From Halobacteriovorax sp. JY17 (lineage in GTDB: Bacteria > Bdellovibrionota > Bacteriovoracia > Bacteriovoracales > Bacteriovoracaceae): DNA of 64,000 nt. Position 1 is the stretch's first letter. Every line of letters starts with the position of its first letter. Under the pieces are notes generated by a model, which was not told the DNA's origin, did no database searches, and saw only the letters and a list, made by a program, of their open reading frames with translations. The translations under genes and the position numbers were made by a program. This document shows positions 11,423 through 16,704 of the stretch, piece by piece. The stretch spans positions 930,001-994,000 of the forward strand of contig NZ_NJER01000001.1 of NCBI RefSeq assembly GCF_002753895.1, given 5' to 3'.

Positions 11423-12082
11423 TTACTGAAAAGTCATCTCAGGAATATCACCATTAACAACAAGTTCAGCTTCAGTCTTTTCAATAATTTCTTCTACAGA
11501 TACTCCAGGAGCTCTTTCAAGAAGGTGAAACTTTCCATCAATGAGTTCAAGAACTGCAAGATCAGAGACAACTTTCTTCACGCACTGAACACCAGTGAGA
11601 GGAAGAGAGCATTCTTTAAGAATTTTTGAAACACCATGCTTATTTGCATGAGTCATTGCTACGATTATATTTTCAGCGCCAGCAACAAGATCCATTGCTC
11701 CGCCCATTCCTTTAACTAATTTTCCAGGAATCATCCAAGAAGCAATATTTCCACTTTGATCAACTTCAAAAGCTCCTAGAACCGTCAGGTCAACATGTCC
11801 TCCACGAATCATTGCAAAGCTATCGGCCGAGTCAAAGAATGATGCTCCCTTTGCACAAGTAACAGTTTGCTTACCTGCATTGATTAAATCTGCATCTACA
11901 TTTTCTTCAGTAGGAAATTCTCCCATACCAAGAAGTCCATTCTCTGATTGAAGCATAATCTCAATGTCAGATGGAACATAGTTAGCAACAAGAGTTGGAA
12001 TTCCAATTCCTAAGTTTACATAGAATCCGTCTTTTAATTCTCTCGCAATTCTTTGCGCGATTTGCTCTTTACTTAATGCCAT
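11423..12082 (-). CDS. scoB: 3-oxoacid CoA-transferase subunit B
   Basis: 219 residues, typical of the B subunit of succinyl-CoA:3-oxoacid (or acetate-type) CoA-transferases. The segment SENGLLGMG near residues 46-54 holds the conserved catalytic Glu that forms the acyl-CoA intermediate. The heterodimer moves CoA from succinyl-CoA to acetoacetate. It lies 17 bases after scoA, with its own AGGTG ribosome site, as the last gene of a fumarase-ScoAB operon. Acetoacetate is an end product of the leucine pathway encoded nearby and of tyrosine breakdown, which gives the enzyme a clear job. AtoA-type alternatives with other acyl groups are possible. Confidence 0.9.
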   Translation of the reverse strand: MALSKEQIAQRIARELKDGFYVNLGIGIPTLVANYVPSDIEIMLQSENGLLGMGEFPTEENVDADLINAGKQTVTCAKGASFFDSADSFAMIRGGHVDLTVLGAFEVDQSGNIASWMIPGKLVKGMGGAMDLVAGAENIIVAMTHANKHGVSKILKECSLPLTGVQCVKKVVSDLAVLELIDGKFHLLERAPGVSVEEIIEKTEAELVVNGDIPEMTFQ

Positions 12083-12099
12083 ATCATCACCTACTTAAA

Positions 12100-12801
12100 T
12101 TATTGTTTTACTGTTCTTTGCTCAATTCTCTTTTCAAATTTCCCTTTGATCACGCGGTTAACGTAGATACCTGGAACTTGAATTTCATTTGGATCAAGCT
12201 CACCTGCTTCAACAATCTCTTCAACTTCAACGACGGTAATTTTTCCTGCCGTAGCAATCATTGAATTAAAGTTTCTAGCAGTCTTTCTAAAAATTAAATT
12301 CCCTTGAGTATCTGCCTTCCAAGCTTTTACCAGTGCAAAGTCTGCTTTTGGGTAGGCCTCTTCCAGAACATACATTCTACCGTTAAATTCCTTTGTCTCT
12401 TTGCCTTCTGCCACTTGAGTACCGTAGCCAGTGGCAGTATAGAAACCAGGAATCCCAGCTCCAGTTGCTCTAATTTTTTCAGCAAGAGTTCCCTGAGGAG
12501 TCAGAATAACTTCCATTTGCCCACTTAAGAATAATTCTTCAAAGAGCTTGTTTTCACCAACGTATGATCCAATCATCGTTTTAATTTGTCTCTTCTCTAA
12601 AAGTTTTCCAAGACCAAAACCATCAACACCTGCATTATTGGAAATACAAGTAAGTCCAGTAACTCCTGAGTCAGCGACTTTATCTATAAGACCTTCAGGA
12701 ATTCCACAAAGACCAAAACCACCAACCATCAGAAGTTGATCGTTAGCAAGCCCTTCTAGGGCTTCTTCATAAGTATTAACAACTTTATTTAAACCTTTCA
12801 T
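12100..12801 (-). CDS. scoA: 3-oxoacid CoA-transferase subunit A
   Basis: 233 residues with the family hallmark glycine-rich segment [13 protein letters not shown] near residues 27-39 and SNNAG near 54. It pairs with the following B subunit to transfer CoA between succinyl-CoA and acetoacetate in the cytoplasm. The gene follows the fumarase beta subunit by 13 bases and is preceded by GAGG at proper spacing, so all four genes form one operon. The clustering with fumarase suggests channelling of acetoacetate and fumarate into the citric acid cycle. Length is normal for the family. Confidence 0.92.
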
Positions 12802-12814
12802 ACTAACCTCTTCT

Positions 12815-13384
12815 TTAAAGAAATTCTTTTAACTTCTCTGAGCTACTCTTCTCTACTTCTGCGTGCAGTGATCCTCCATGAGAGTCCATTGTCACAACAA
12901 CTGGAAAGTCTTTAACTGTTAATTCCCAAATCGCCTCTGGTGAACCAAGATCTTGCCAGAATACATCATCAACTGATTCAATCTTCTCTGCTAAAACTTG
13001 AGCTGCTCCGCCTATCGCGTGAAAGTAAACACAGCCATAGTCCATACACCCTTGAAGAGTTTTCGGACCCATGCCACCTTTGCCGATGACACCAAGAATT
13101 CCATGATCTCTCATGACTTCCCACTGGTACGGCTCTTCTCTAATTGAAGTCGTAGGCCCAGCTGCTTTAACCTCATACTTTCCAGACTTCTTATCTTGAA
13201 TAACAACGGGACCGCAGTGATAAATAATTTGATTATTAAAATCCACAGGAGGTTTTACACCTTCGTGTAATCTCTTATGAACGGCGTCTCTTCCAGTATA
13301 CATTTTTCCAGAAATGAGAACCATATCGCCGACACGAAGCTCTCTAATTTGTTCTTTATTAAATGGATAATCTATTCTTTTCAT
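12815..13384 (-). CDS. Fumarate hydratase class I, beta subunit/domain
   Basis: 189 residues matching the C-terminal (beta) domain of class I Fe-S fumarases and L(+)-tartrate dehydratases. It contains [17 protein letters not shown], a GPTTS segment and KGGMG, which form the substrate-binding part. In E. coli FumA the alpha and beta parts are one polypeptide; here they are separate genes 9 bases apart, as in many bacteria and archaea. It catalyses fumarate plus water to malate together with the alpha subunit. A tartrate dehydratase beta subunit looks similar, but the neighbouring genes favour fumarase. Confidence 0.88.
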
Positions 13385-13393
13385 TATTACCTC

Positions 13394-14500
13394 TTAGTAA
13401 AGCCAGCTTTTAATTTTATTAGACTTATCAAGCGCTACACCTTGTCTACGGTAGGCCCAACACATATACGACACAGAAACAAAGAAACTTGCAGGAAGTC
13501 TATTGAGCGCTCCAACTTTGCAGCCAAGAAGAGTTGTCTTTCCACCAAAACCCATTGGACCAATACCAAGCTTATTAGCCGTTTCAACAATATCTTTTTC
13601 AAGTGCTGCTAATTCAGGAACTGAATTTGTGTCATCTAATTTTCTTAGAAGTTGTTCTTTTGAGAAGACATATCCCGCTCCTCTATCACCACCAATTGTG
13701 ACTCCAAGGACTCCTGGTCCACAACCTTTTCCCTGTGCCTTAACAATAGCATCGAGGATAACTTTTCTCACCCCATCAAGGTCACGTCCCGCTTCAAGAG
13801 CAGTATTTGGTAGAGAGTATTGAGCACCAACATTCTCACAACCTCCACCTTTAAGCATGAGCTTAACTTCAACAGTATTCTTTGAATGCTCATGGAAGTG
13901 CATATCAGGATGACCTGGACCAATATTCATGGTCTCGTTCTTCCCTGTAAGTGAATCAACAGAGTTTTGTCTTAGGTAACCAACTTCGGTTGCTTTAACA
14001 ACGGCCTTATGAACAACTTTAGTAAACTTCGTTTGATTGAATCCAGCAGGGTGAGAAATATAGAAGAGAATTGTTCCTGTATCCTGACAAAGTGGCTGCG
14101 ACTTTCTTTTAGCAAGTTCAATATTTGCTTTAATAATACCCATGGCATATTCAGCAGTAGTATTCTTCTCTTCTCTAGCGAGAGCTTCAAGAACAACTTT
14201 TTGAATATCGTCTGGAATTTCTGCAGATGTAATTCTGATTAACTCTAGCATTGAATCGAAGAGAACCTTATCAGGATTAATGGCCTTCTTAACTATTTTC
14301 TTAGCTGTTGTTTTCTTTTTAACGGCGGAAGTTGATTTCTTCTTCGTTACTTTCTTTGCGACTTTTTTCTTAGTTACTTTCTTTGCTACTTTTTTAGCGA
14401 CTTTCTTAGTCGTTTTCTTAGCTGTCTTTTTCCCAACTTTCTTAGTAGATTTCTTAGCCGTTTTCTTAGTAGATTTCTTGGCCACTTTCTTCTTTGCCAT
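13394..14500 (-). CDS. Fumarate hydratase class I, alpha subunit with histone H1-like N-terminal tail
   Basis: 368 residues. Residues 1 to about 72 are almost only Lys, Ala, Val and Thr in repeats such as AKKSTKK and KKVAKKV. This resembles the C-terminal tail of eukaryotic histone H1 or bacterial H1-like proteins. The catalytic alpha domain follows (about 75-368): CQDTG, GGGCEN, GCGPGVLG and GGKTTLLG carry the candidate Fe-S-cluster and substrate residues. Usual alpha subunits are about 280 residues and lack such a tail. The frame is continuous with a single strong ribosome site (GAGGAG) before the tail, so the tail looks truly translated. First gene of the operon. Confidence 0.88.
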   Translation of the reverse strand: MAKKKVAKKSTKKTAKKSTKKVGKKTAKKTTKKVAKKVAKKVTKKKVAKKVTKKKSTSAVKKKTTAKKIVKKAINPDKVLFDSMLELIRITSAEIPDDIQKVVLEALAREEKNTTAEYAMGIIKANIELAKRKSQPLCQDTGTILFYISHPAGFNQTKFTKVVHKAVVKATEVGYLRQNSVDSLTGKNETMNIGPGHPDMHFHEHSKNTVEVKLMLKGGGCENVGAQYSLPNTALEAGRDLDGVRKVILDAIVKAQGKGCGPGVLGVTIGGDRGAGYVFSKEQLLRKLDDTNSVPELAALEKDIVETANKLGIGPMGFGGKTTLLGCKVGALNRLPASFFVSVSYMCWAYRRQGVALDKSNKIKSWLY

Positions 14501-14652
14501 AGGTCAGACTCCTCTTCTCTATAATTTATTGAGTTTATGTAATTTTAAGCAATTTCAGTTTGCGAAAAGTATAACAATGGCCTTAGTTATTGCCTAGTTA
14601 TATTCTTACTTTGTCATTGGCGAAGGTTCCCATTTCGGCTATTGTGTAGCTT

Positions 14653-16704
14653 ATGATTTCACTAAGTGGTTTAAATGCTGCACAGAGACAAGCAGCCGAT
14701 ACAATTGAGGGACCAGTACTAATTCTGGCCGGCGCTGGTAGTGGAAAAACACGAACAATTACCTATAGAATTGCCCATATGGTGGATAACCTTGCCATCA
14801 ATCAAAAATCAATCTTAGCAGTAAGTTTCACCAATAAGGCCGCCAAAGAAATGCGTGAACGTATTATCGGACTTCTTGGAAAGAGAAAGGCCCGTGGCCT
14901 TACAATGGCAACCTTCCACTCCCTTGGAGTGAAGATTCTAAAAAAAGAAATTGCTAAACTCGGTTATCACAAAAACTTCTCTATTTATGATTCAGCTGAC
15001 CAATCTTCAATTATGAGAGAGGCCTTAAAGAGCTTTAAGGCAGGAAAGCAATTTGATCAGAAAATAATTATGTCTAAAATTGGAAAACTTAAAAATCAAG
15101 GTATTGGTCCCGACGACTACGCTAATAGCGAATACTTTGATGACGAAGACCCATATGACCACGCAACTCTCTATGTCTATGAATTCTACCAAGACAAATT
15201 GAAGTTTTATAATGCCATTGATTTTGACGATATCCTCTTTCTCACTGTAAAGCTTTTTACAGACTTTCCAGAAGTAGCAAAAGAGTACTCCGAACAATTT
15301 AAGTATATCATGGTCGATGAATACCAAGATACAAACTCTCTTCAATTTGATTTAATTTCAGGCTTAACCTCAACTCACAATAACCTCTGTGTGGTGGGAG
15401 ATGATGATCAAGCAATTTACTCTTTTAGAGGTGCTGATATCACAAATATTCTAAGTTTTGAGAGAATGTTTCCTGGTGCAAAAGTTGTTAAGTTAGAAGA
15501 AAATTACCGCTCAGTTAGCCCTATCTTAGAGCTTGCCAATAAAGTTATTAAAGAAAATACCAATAGAAGAGATAAGACTCTCTGGTCTCAGAGGCAGAGT
15601 CCTGATAAACCTCTCTTGTGGTCTATGGCCAATACAGAACATGAAGCCGAAGTGATTGCTGATGAAATTTCAAAGCATCAATCAAGAGGTGGTCACTTAG
15701 GAGATATTGCAGTTCTCTATAGATCCAATACTCAGGCCCAGCCATTTGAAGAAATCTTTCGCATGAATCAAATTCCCTACACCATTATTGGTGGACAGAA
15801 ATTCTATGAAAAGAAGGAAGTTAAAGATCTCATGGCCTACCTCACGGTTATTTTAAATCCTAAAGATCAACTCCAGCTAAGAAGAATTTTAAATGTTCCA
15901 AATAGAGGTATTGGCTCAAGAACTTTAGAGAAGTACTTAGAAAAGTCAGAGGCCGAAGGTCTCTCTCTCTACGATACTCTCTACAAGTATCCTGACGTGG
16001 ACCCTAATCGAGCAACTAGAATTAGTGAATTTACCGCAACTATCACAAAGTTCAAGGAAGTATTCGAGCAACATCCTCTTCCACAGGCAATTAGTAAACT
16101 CGTTGAAGATATAAACTTCTATCAATTCATTGAGAAGTCTTATGACAGCGCCAAGCAAGTAGAGAGAAGAAGAAATGACGTCAATTTCTTCATTGAATCG
16201 GCGGAGCGTTTTGTTAAGTATAATGGTAACCATGCCACGCTTAAGAACTTTGTTGAAAAGCTTCTCTTACAAGATAATCAAGATACAGAAGAAGATGAAG
16301 ATGACGATATCAGAAAGAATGAAGTCACTATGATGACCTTTCACTCTTCTAAAGGGCTTGAATTCGACACCGTCTACATGGTGGGAGTTGAAGAAGAAAG
16401 TCTTCCTCACAAGAATACAATTAAAAATGGCGAAGATATCTCAGAAGAAAGACGTCTCTGCTATGTGGGAATTACAAGAGCACAGCAAAAGCTTATTATG
16501 ACCTACTGCAAAGAAAGAAAGATTTACGGAAAGGAAACTCCCCGCTTCGTTAGTCGCTTTATAAATGATCTAGATAAAGATGGATTCTGCGTCCATCAAG
16601 ACAGAACGACTTTTGGACATATGACCGAAGAAGAAGCCGATGATTATAAGAAAGGTTTCTTTGCCAATCTAATTGATGGTCTTGATGACGATTCGATTTA
16701 TTAA
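14653..16704 (+). CDS. Rep/UvrD/PcrA-type ATP-dependent DNA helicase
   Basis: 683 residues of a superfamily 1A helicase. Motif I is GAGSGKT (residues 28-34), Ia is SFTNKAA, II is VDEYQDTN, III is VVGDDDQAIYSFRGA, IV is LEENYRS, V is MTFHSSKGLEFD and VI is VGITRAQQ. The order and the N-terminal LNAAQRQAAD match Rep and PcrA; Rep and UvrD both remain possible. It unwinds DNA 3' to 5' during replication restart or repair. The gene is monocistronic and divergent from the fumarase operon. An acidic stretch (EDEDDD) lies near residue 550. Confidence 0.93.
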   Translation: MISLSGLNAAQRQAADTIEGPVLILAGAGSGKTRTITYRIAHMVDNLAINQKSILAVSFTNKAAKEMRERIIGLLGKRKARGLTMATFHSLGVKILKKEIAKLGYHKNFSIYDSADQSSIMREALKSFKAGKQFDQKIIMSKIGKLKNQGIGPDDYANSEYFDDEDPYDHATLYVYEFYQDKLKFYNAIDFDDILFLTVKLFTDFPEVAKEYSEQFKYIMVDEYQDTNSLQFDLISGLTSTHNNLCVVGDDDQAIYSFRGADITNILSFERMFPGAKVVKLEENYRSVSPILELANKVIKENTNRRDKTLWSQRQSPDKPLLWSMANTEHEAEVIADEISKHQSRGGHLGDIAVLYRSNTQAQPFEEIFRMNQIPYTIIGGQKFYEKKEVKDLMAYLTVILNPKDQLQLRRILNVPNRGIGSRTLEKYLEKSEAEGLSLYDTLYKYPDVDPNRATRISEFTATITKFKEVFEQHPLPQAISKLVEDINFYQFIEKSYDSAKQVERRRNDVNFFIESAERFVKYNGNHATLKNFVEKLLLQDNQDTEEDEDDDIRKNEVTMMTFHSSKGLEFDTVYMVGVEEESLPHKNTIKNGEDISEERRLCYVGITRAQQKLIMTYCKERKIYGKETPRFVSRFINDLDKDGFCVHQDRTTFGHMTEEEADDYKKGFFANLIDGLDDDSIY

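What the first reader, a model, noticed from the sequence alone, without database searches (positions are those of the whole stretch)
14280..14500. Histone H1-like Lys/Ala tail on a class I fumarase
The first 72 residues of the alpha subunit are almost all Lys, Ala, Val and Thr in short repeats like an H1 tail. Such tails bind DNA, RNA or polyphosphate. A metabolic Fe-S enzyme with a nucleic-acid-binding tail is very unusual. Fumarase moonlights in DNA damage response in eukaryotes and Bacillus, which makes this worth a test. The frame is continuous with one start.
Basis: partly seen in the sequence, partly recalled or inferred. Interest (0 to 1): 0.55.

Follow-up and report, generated by a model that had tools for sequence, protein, structure and literature searches.

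The report
Histone-H1-like tail on predator fumarase
In a family of marine predatory bacteria the enzyme fumarase carries a long, strongly positive, flexible tail of the kind that usually holds proteins on DNA, which suggests that this everyday metabolic enzyme is kept on the chromosome or on RNA.

Summary
The only fumarase found in this Halobacteriovorax-type genome (class I, two-subunit) starts with 74 residues that are 49% Lys, net +36, with no Asp or Glu. A Shine-Dalgarno site precedes the start, and no usable start lies between tail and enzyme. It is not a one-strain oddity. Of 103 fumarase alpha genes found in 129 genomes of the family, 87 have a Lys-rich tail (about 17-160 residues), 15 have none and 1 is unreadable. 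None of 29 relatives read from other families of the phylum has one. Tail length changes fast, but codon use shows the charge is kept at protein level. The same kind of tail sits on a histone-fold protein, an H1-like protein, TopA and a SWIB protein in this genome. It is not unique to fumarase among enzymes: AMP nucleosidase has one family-wide, and a PrxQ peroxiredoxin has one in two other genera. Best reading: a conserved polycationic tether that keeps fumarase on nucleic acid, most likely the nucleoid. Polyphosphate is unlikely in this genus (no PPK1; no PPK2 in this genome). A DNA-damage role is possible but untested. All binding claims are inference.

The parts
14279..14500 (-). Lys/Ala/Val/Thr tail, residues 1-74 of fumarase alpha, net charge +36
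   Evidence: AlphaFold2 residues 1-70 pLDDT < 50
13394..14278 (-). class I fumarase alpha catalytic part (PF05681, residues 84-354); Cys138, 221, 260 and 347 invariant in 42 aligned relatives
   Evidence: fold matches 7xky and L. major FH
14509..14513 (-). Shine-Dalgarno AGGAG, 8 nt before the tail's ATG
   Evidence: sequence
12815..13384 (-). fumarase beta subunit (PF05683), 9 bp downstream, no tail
   Evidence: found next to alpha in 101 of 103 family loci
12100..12801 (-). 3-oxoacid CoA-transferase subunit A, same direction
11423..12082 (-). 3-oxoacid CoA-transferase subunit B, same direction
14653..16704 (+). PcrA/UvrD-like helicase, divergent neighbour, not coupled to the tail
   Evidence: neighbour count

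Best explanation
The tail is a real, selected, disordered polycation fused to the only fumarase found in the genome. It works as a sequence-nonspecific electrostatic tether. Each alpha subunit brings about 36 positive charges, and the enzyme should carry at least two alpha subunits (inferred from known class I fumarases), so it binds nucleic acid multivalently and stays on the nucleoid (or on RNA), next to H1-like, histone-fold and topoisomerase proteins with the same kind of tail. Catalysis is done by the untouched core, so fumarate and malate would be turned over beside the DNA. Shown: continuous reading frame with its own start signal, disorder prediction, lineage-wide retention with changing length, protein-level constraint on charge, shared use of this kind of tail with DNA/RNA proteins. 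Inferred: nucleic-acid binding, nucleoid localisation, any benefit.
For: Tail in 87 of 103 family loci, none in 15, 1 unreadable; tail-less in 29 of 29 readable relatives from other families of the phylum (31 hits, 2 fragments not fetched). The tree of 115 core sequences needs only 6 changes of the tail label inside the family (shuffled mean 24.5 for the tail label, 0 of 500 as low), with six tail-less rows grouped at the base: fits one early gain and a few losses. Codons of 83 tails: 2391 Lys against 16 Glu, one base step away; core 2232 Lys against 1339 Glu; third positions of Ala, Val and Thr are mixed. Composition is close to that of the pure H1-like protein L133 and the SWIB tail of the same genome, with less Ala and more Thr. 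Of 9 ORFs with two or more tail motifs in this genome, the others are TopA, IF-2, a SWIB protein, an H1-like protein, two helical proteins with C-terminal tails and two of unknown function. Pfam HC2 (H1-like nucleoprotein) weakly hits the TopA tail. No PPK1 or PPK2 match in this genome. Literature: lysine-rich low-complexity regions go with DNA binding (PMC6821194); AlgP-type tails bind DNA (PMC9239181).
Against: No binding or localisation data. AMP nucleosidase and, in two genera, a peroxiredoxin carry similar tails, so the tail may serve something shared by soluble enzymes. Some tails are only about 17-30 residues and 15 of 103 loci have none, so the function is dispensable. Anionic membrane or RNA would bind such a tail as well. 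No single gene neighbour ties it to DNA repair.
Confidence: 0.5

Rival explanations
1. RNA or ribosome tether and condensate: the tail binds RNA rather than DNA and gathers fumarase and other tailed enzymes in RNA-rich bodies or on ribosomes.
For: IF-2 and a DEAD-box helicase of this genome also carry Lys-rich stretches. Lysine-rich low-complexity regions are also linked to RNA binding (PMC6821194 passages).
Against: The longest tails of this kind found in the genome are on H1-like, SWIB and unknown proteins rather than on recognised RNA proteins.
Confidence: 0.2
2. Damage-response moonlighting: the tail makes permanent the DNA association that other bacterial fumarases show only after damage, feeding malate or fumarate signals to repair.
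For: B. subtilis Fum-bc co-localises with DNA after damage (PMC5711358). E. coli class I FumA/FumB take part in the damage response (cited in PMC12098349). A PcrA-like helicase gene is divergent next door in 45 of 79 tailed loci with enough flank.
Against: The helicase neighbour is absent in 34 of those 79 tailed loci and present in 4 of 15 tail-less loci. No AlkB or RecN test was made. AMP nucleosidase has a similar tail without a known repair role.
Confidence: 0.15
3. Polyphosphate or storage-granule binding, as for AlgP.
For: AlgP's H1-like tail is needed for polyphosphate granule spacing (PMC9239181). 40 of 87 tailed genomes have PPK1.
Against: No PPK1 match in G000-G004 and no PPK2 match in G000; 12 tailed genomes are listed as PPK1-negative. 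Tails are longer outside the PPK1-positive set (median 73 against 35).
Confidence: 0.05
4. Anionic membrane association: the tail holds fumarase at the inner membrane near succinate dehydrogenase.
For: Lysine-rich repeats can place proteins at a membrane periphery in another system (PMC5207086, abstract start in listing). The neighbouring TCA enzyme makes fumarate at the membrane (established biochemistry).
Against: No hydrophobic or amphipathic spacing is apparent in the tail; the same kind of tail sits on histone-fold and topoisomerase proteins.
Confidence: 0.1
5. No function: low-complexity DNA that expands by slippage and is tolerated.
For: Length varies about two-fold inside one genus (74 to 141 residues). 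Tandem repeats are visible in the DNA. Several losses.
Against: Acidic residues are nearly absent although one base step away, while silent positions are mixed. Retained in 87 of 103 loci. No tail in 29 of 29 readable relatives from other families. 56 other ORFs of the window lack such a stretch.
Confidence: 0.1

Closest known systems
AlgP and PhaF KPAA-repeat C-terminal tails of Pseudomonas (PMC9239181, passages read)
   Same: Long, disordered Lys/Ala-rich H1-like tail; repeat number varies between isolates; peptides bind DNA; thought to tether something else to the chromosome
   Different: C-terminal, Pro-rich, on granule-organising helical proteins, not on a metabolic enzyme
Lysine repeats of actinobacterial topoisomerase I (PMC7398561, abstract start in listing)
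   Same: Lys-rich repeats added to a conserved enzyme, lineage-bound, variable length
   Different: The enzyme's substrate is DNA itself; C-terminal
B. subtilis fumarase Fum-bc in the DNA damage response (PMC5711358, passages read)
   Same: A fumarase found with DNA; its product malate matters for repair
   Different: Class II enzyme; association follows damage; no polycationic tail is mentioned in the passages read
E. coli class I fumarases FumA/FumB in the damage response (Silas 2021, seen only as cited in PMC12098349)
   Same: Class I Fe-S fumarase linked to DNA damage signalling by metabolites
   Different: Single-chain enzymes; no such tail known to me (recalled)
Two-subunit fumarase of Methanocaldococcus jannaschii, PDB 7xky
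   Same: Core fold and subunit layout (E 1e-38; TM 0.89 on the target)
   Different: Its 298-residue chain matches from residue 13 on, so it has no long N-terminal tail

Membership tests
Class I two-subunit fumarase, alpha subunit | PF05681 Fumerase domain over the gathering score | tested here: met
   231.9 bits, cut-off 25
Class I two-subunit fumarase, alpha subunit | separate beta subunit (PF05683) next door | tested here: met
   12815-13384
Class I two-subunit fumarase, alpha subunit | conserved cysteines for the Fe-S cluster | tested here: met
   Cys138, 221, 260, 347 invariant in 42 rows; which three hold the cluster was not tested (138, 260, 347 by recalled spacing)
Class I two-subunit fumarase, alpha subunit | NCBIfam fumarate hydratase equivalog cut-off (NF004885) | tested here: not met
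   208 bits, cut-off 276; subfamily model TIGR00722 is met with 203.6 against 100.65. Substrate specificity is therefore inferred; no class II fumarase over cut-off in the genome
Class I two-subunit fumarase, alpha subunit | fumarase activity | not testable with these tools
   enzyme assay needed
H1-like Lys/Ala-rich tails (AlgP/HC2 type) | Lys at least 30%, rich in Ala, hardly any acidic residue, disordered | tested here: met
   49% K, 14% A, 0 D/E; pLDDT < 50
H1-like Lys/Ala-rich tails (AlgP/HC2 type) | match to a curated H1-like family | tested here: not met
   only PF05681 hit at E 0.01, so the likeness is of composition, not descent
H1-like Lys/Ala-rich tails (AlgP/HC2 type) | binds DNA | not testable with these tools
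   EMSA needed
Fumarase of the bacterial DNA damage response | found with DNA after damage; loss gives sensitivity | not testable with these tools
   microscopy and mutant survival needed

The most novel reading that the evidence does not exclude
In this family of predatory bacteria a polycationic tail acts as a portable chromosome-targeting tag that has been put on selected metabolic enzymes (fumarase, AMP nucleosidase, in some genera a peroxiredoxin) as well as on a histone-fold protein, so that part of central metabolism and peroxide defence is carried out on the nucleoid.
Probability: 0.3. Interest if true: 0.8.

Novelty: new variant of a known kind. Interest (0 to 1): 0.52.

Why it matters
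Fumarase has been linked to DNA repair in eukaryotes, Bacillus and E. coli, but there the DNA association is indirect or induced. Here a whole lineage has a built-in candidate tether on what is, in this genome, the only fumarase found, with natural tail-less relatives as controls. It makes a direct test possible of whether placing a TCA enzyme on the chromosome matters, and it points to a set of tailed enzymes rather than a single curiosity.

Tried and rejected
Wrong start (enzyme begins after the tail): rejected. There is no usable start in between, an SD sits before the tail, and in nearly all tailed relatives an SD-like site precedes the tail (SD score 0 in 3 of 83).

Fumarase as the only tailed enzyme: held at first, then dropped when AMP nucleosidase and PrxQ turned up.

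Link to the divergent helicase: counted and not coupled.

Tail copied from another tail of the same genome: the longest exact DNA match was no longer than in many synonymously recoded controls for 4 of 5 tails compared (10 to 35 of 60 controls as long). For L135 it was longer (22 nt, 0 of 60 controls as long), so local exchange with that gene cannot be excluded.

Polyphosphate: no PPK1 or PPK2 match in this genome.

The tail survey therefore rests on two motif searches and can miss tails without KKxxKK; the AMP nucleosidase tail was caught by one single hit.

Start choice is by rule and picks an upstream start in a few loci (for example L151, L171, L204, L216, L218, L243), so some lengths are too long; tail calls do not change.

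The tree is the quick method without mixture model; L251 (fragment, no tail) was left out of it.

Paper searches that found nothing on tailed fumarases or on these predators' lysine-rich tails: (open-licence full texts only).

Full report
WHAT IS THERE. The gene at 13394-14500 on the minus strand encodes 368 residues. Residues 1-74 are Lys/Thr/Ala/Val with no acidic residue, net +36. From residue 84 it is a class I fumarase alpha subunit (PF05681, 231.9 bits), followed 9 bp on by the beta subunit and then by the two subunits of a 3-oxoacid CoA-transferase. The genome has one PF05681 gene and no class II fumarase over the model's cut-off (best 42 bits against 664.75), so the tailed protein is the only fumarase found. 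Its specificity is inferred: the stricter fumarate hydratase model is missed (208 bits, cut-off 276) while the subfamily model is met. AlphaFold2 leaves residues 1-70 below pLDDT 50 and builds the core well. The core matches the two-subunit fumarase of M. jannaschii and the Leishmania enzyme. The closest named relatives are Halobacteriovorax and Bacteriovoracaceae records.

IT IS NOT CHANCE OR A WRONG START. The 40-residue Lys maximum is 0.55 against 0.28 for the next of 57 ORFs kept in the window. AGGAG lies 8 nt before the ATG. Other in-frame starts up to codon 120 are only GTG at codon 6 and ATG at codon 84, and codon 84 lies inside the core, where the consensus of relatives has Leu.

HOW FAR IT SPREADS. 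All 5 genomes of the genus have a tailed copy. In the family, 103 of 129 genomes gave a match at 1e-60. I read every one of these 103 N-termini. By rule (at least 12 residues, at least 25% Lys), 83 of the 99 with a readable start are tailed. Of the 16 others, L223 has a 54-residue extension just under 25% Lys and I count it as tailed. Of the four without a readable start, three (L157, L158, L180) are cut by the contig end but show the tail, and one (L220) is masked. Total: 87 tailed, 15 not, 1 unknown. Lengths by rule run from 17 to 161, median 49; Lys is 45.7% and Asp plus Glu 1.0%. In other families of the phylum there were 31 hits; two fragments (G251, G272) were not fetched; of the 29 read, none has a tail. 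Among 80 named loci (of 227 found), the 64 outside this lineage (L034-L097) include one with a Lys/Arg/Ala/Pro extension (L086, Eisenbacteria MAG), and two are cut at the contig start (L049, L068).

HOW IT EVOLVED. On a tree of 115 cores (102 of the 103 family rows, L251 left out, plus 13 outgroup rows) the tail label changes 6 times inside the family (all rows with outgroup: 7). For the tail label the shuffled mean is 24.5 and 0 of 500 shuffles are as low. Six tail-less rows group at the base (quick method, many weak forks). One early gain with a few losses fits; parsimony cannot tell gain from loss. Length turns over fast: 74 residues here and 141 in the relative with 97% core identity. The charge is nevertheless kept. 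In 83 tails there are 2391 Lys and 16 Glu codons, against 2232 and 1339 in the cores, and all four third bases are used for Ala, Val and Thr. That is constraint on the protein, not only a simple DNA repeat, although tandem repeats are visible.

WHAT ELSE HAS THIS TAIL. In this genome the motif KK[ATIV][AT]KK gives 100 matches against 5 for the reversed pattern. I fetched the places and found nine ORFs with two or more in-frame motifs: fumarase alpha, TopA, IF-2, a SWIB-domain protein, a pure H1-like protein of 136 aa, two helical proteins with C-terminal tails, and two proteins of unknown function. A second motif search added no further ORF of this kind. Single-motif ORFs with Lys-rich ends include a 79-residue protein with a weak histone-fold match (E 0.00072, just under its cut-off), a topoisomerase IV subunit A, a DEAD-box helicase, and AMP nucleosidase. 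So most tailed proteins of recognised kind handle nucleic acid, but fumarase is not alone among metabolic enzymes. AMP nucleosidase has a Lys-rich N-terminal extension in 28 of the 30 family loci read (72 of 125 genomes matched). A PrxQ/BCP-type peroxiredoxin has a Lys-rich tail, mostly 40-100 residues, in 24 of the 25 loci read from two other genera and in none of the 5 read from further genera (30 loci of 103 matching genomes).

WHAT IT MOST LIKELY DOES. A disordered polycation of this make-up should bind nucleic acid by charge. Lysine-rich low-complexity regions of bacteria go with DNA binding (PMC6821194, passages), and the similar AlgP tail binds DNA and is thought to tie polyphosphate granules to the chromosome (PMC9239181, passages). 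I therefore take the tail as a tether of fumarase to the nucleoid (0.5), with RNA as the main rival. Polyphosphate is unlikely in this genus: PPK1 is not found in G000-G004 and PPK2 not in G000; of 87 tailed genomes 40 have PPK1, 12 are listed without it and 35 were not shown or not searched. Damage signalling is attractive because B. subtilis fumarase moves to DNA after damage (class II enzyme; PMC5711358, passages) and E. coli class I fumarases act in the damage response (Silas 2021, seen only as cited in PMC12098349). Nothing here tests it, and the divergent PcrA-like helicase is present in 45 and absent in 34 tailed loci with enough flank (8 more had too little), and present in 4 of 15 tail-less loci.

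NOVELTY. Lys-rich tails on DNA proteins are well known. A lineage-wide one on a TCA enzyme, with similar tails on two more enzymes, I did not find in print (searches; open-licence texts only). I rate it a new variant of a known kind.

Noticed in passing
L136:1999-2238 (G000:C1) and L269:2043-2297 (G001): 79- and 84-residue proteins ending in a histone-fold-like part (CBFD_NFYB_HMF for L136, E 0.00072, just under cut-off; L269 by likeness) that start with a Lys/Ala tail, a eukaryote-like layout. Most bacterial singlet histones are said to lack long N-terminal tails (PMC10627809 passage).
   Followed up: partly
L253:116-1162 (G000:C3); family loci L275-L304: AMP nucleosidase with a Lys/Ser/Thr-rich N-terminal extension, Lys-rich in 28 of 30 family loci read.
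   Followed up: partly
L305-L329 (genera g36 and g43): PrxQ/BCP-type peroxiredoxin with Lys/Ala tails, mostly 40-100 residues, in 24 of 25 loci; tail-less in 5 loci read from other genera.
   Followed up: partly
L135:2199-2849 (G000:C3), L274:1462-2367 (G001), L258 (G104): Protein of unknown function with a long Lys/Ala tail followed by a strongly acidic C-terminal part, seen in two genera.
   Followed up: no
L132:2345-3433 (G000:C1), L010/L017 in relatives: Protein of about 330-370 residues with a long Lys/Ala tail and Cys/His residues in its C-terminal part; no Pfam or NCBIfam match for L132.
   Followed up: no
L086: Independent Lys/Arg/Ala/Pro-rich N-terminal extension on a fumarase alpha of an Eisenbacteria MAG.
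   Followed up: no
L263:1979-2863 (G104): Ku protein with a Lys-rich C-terminal end.
   Followed up: no
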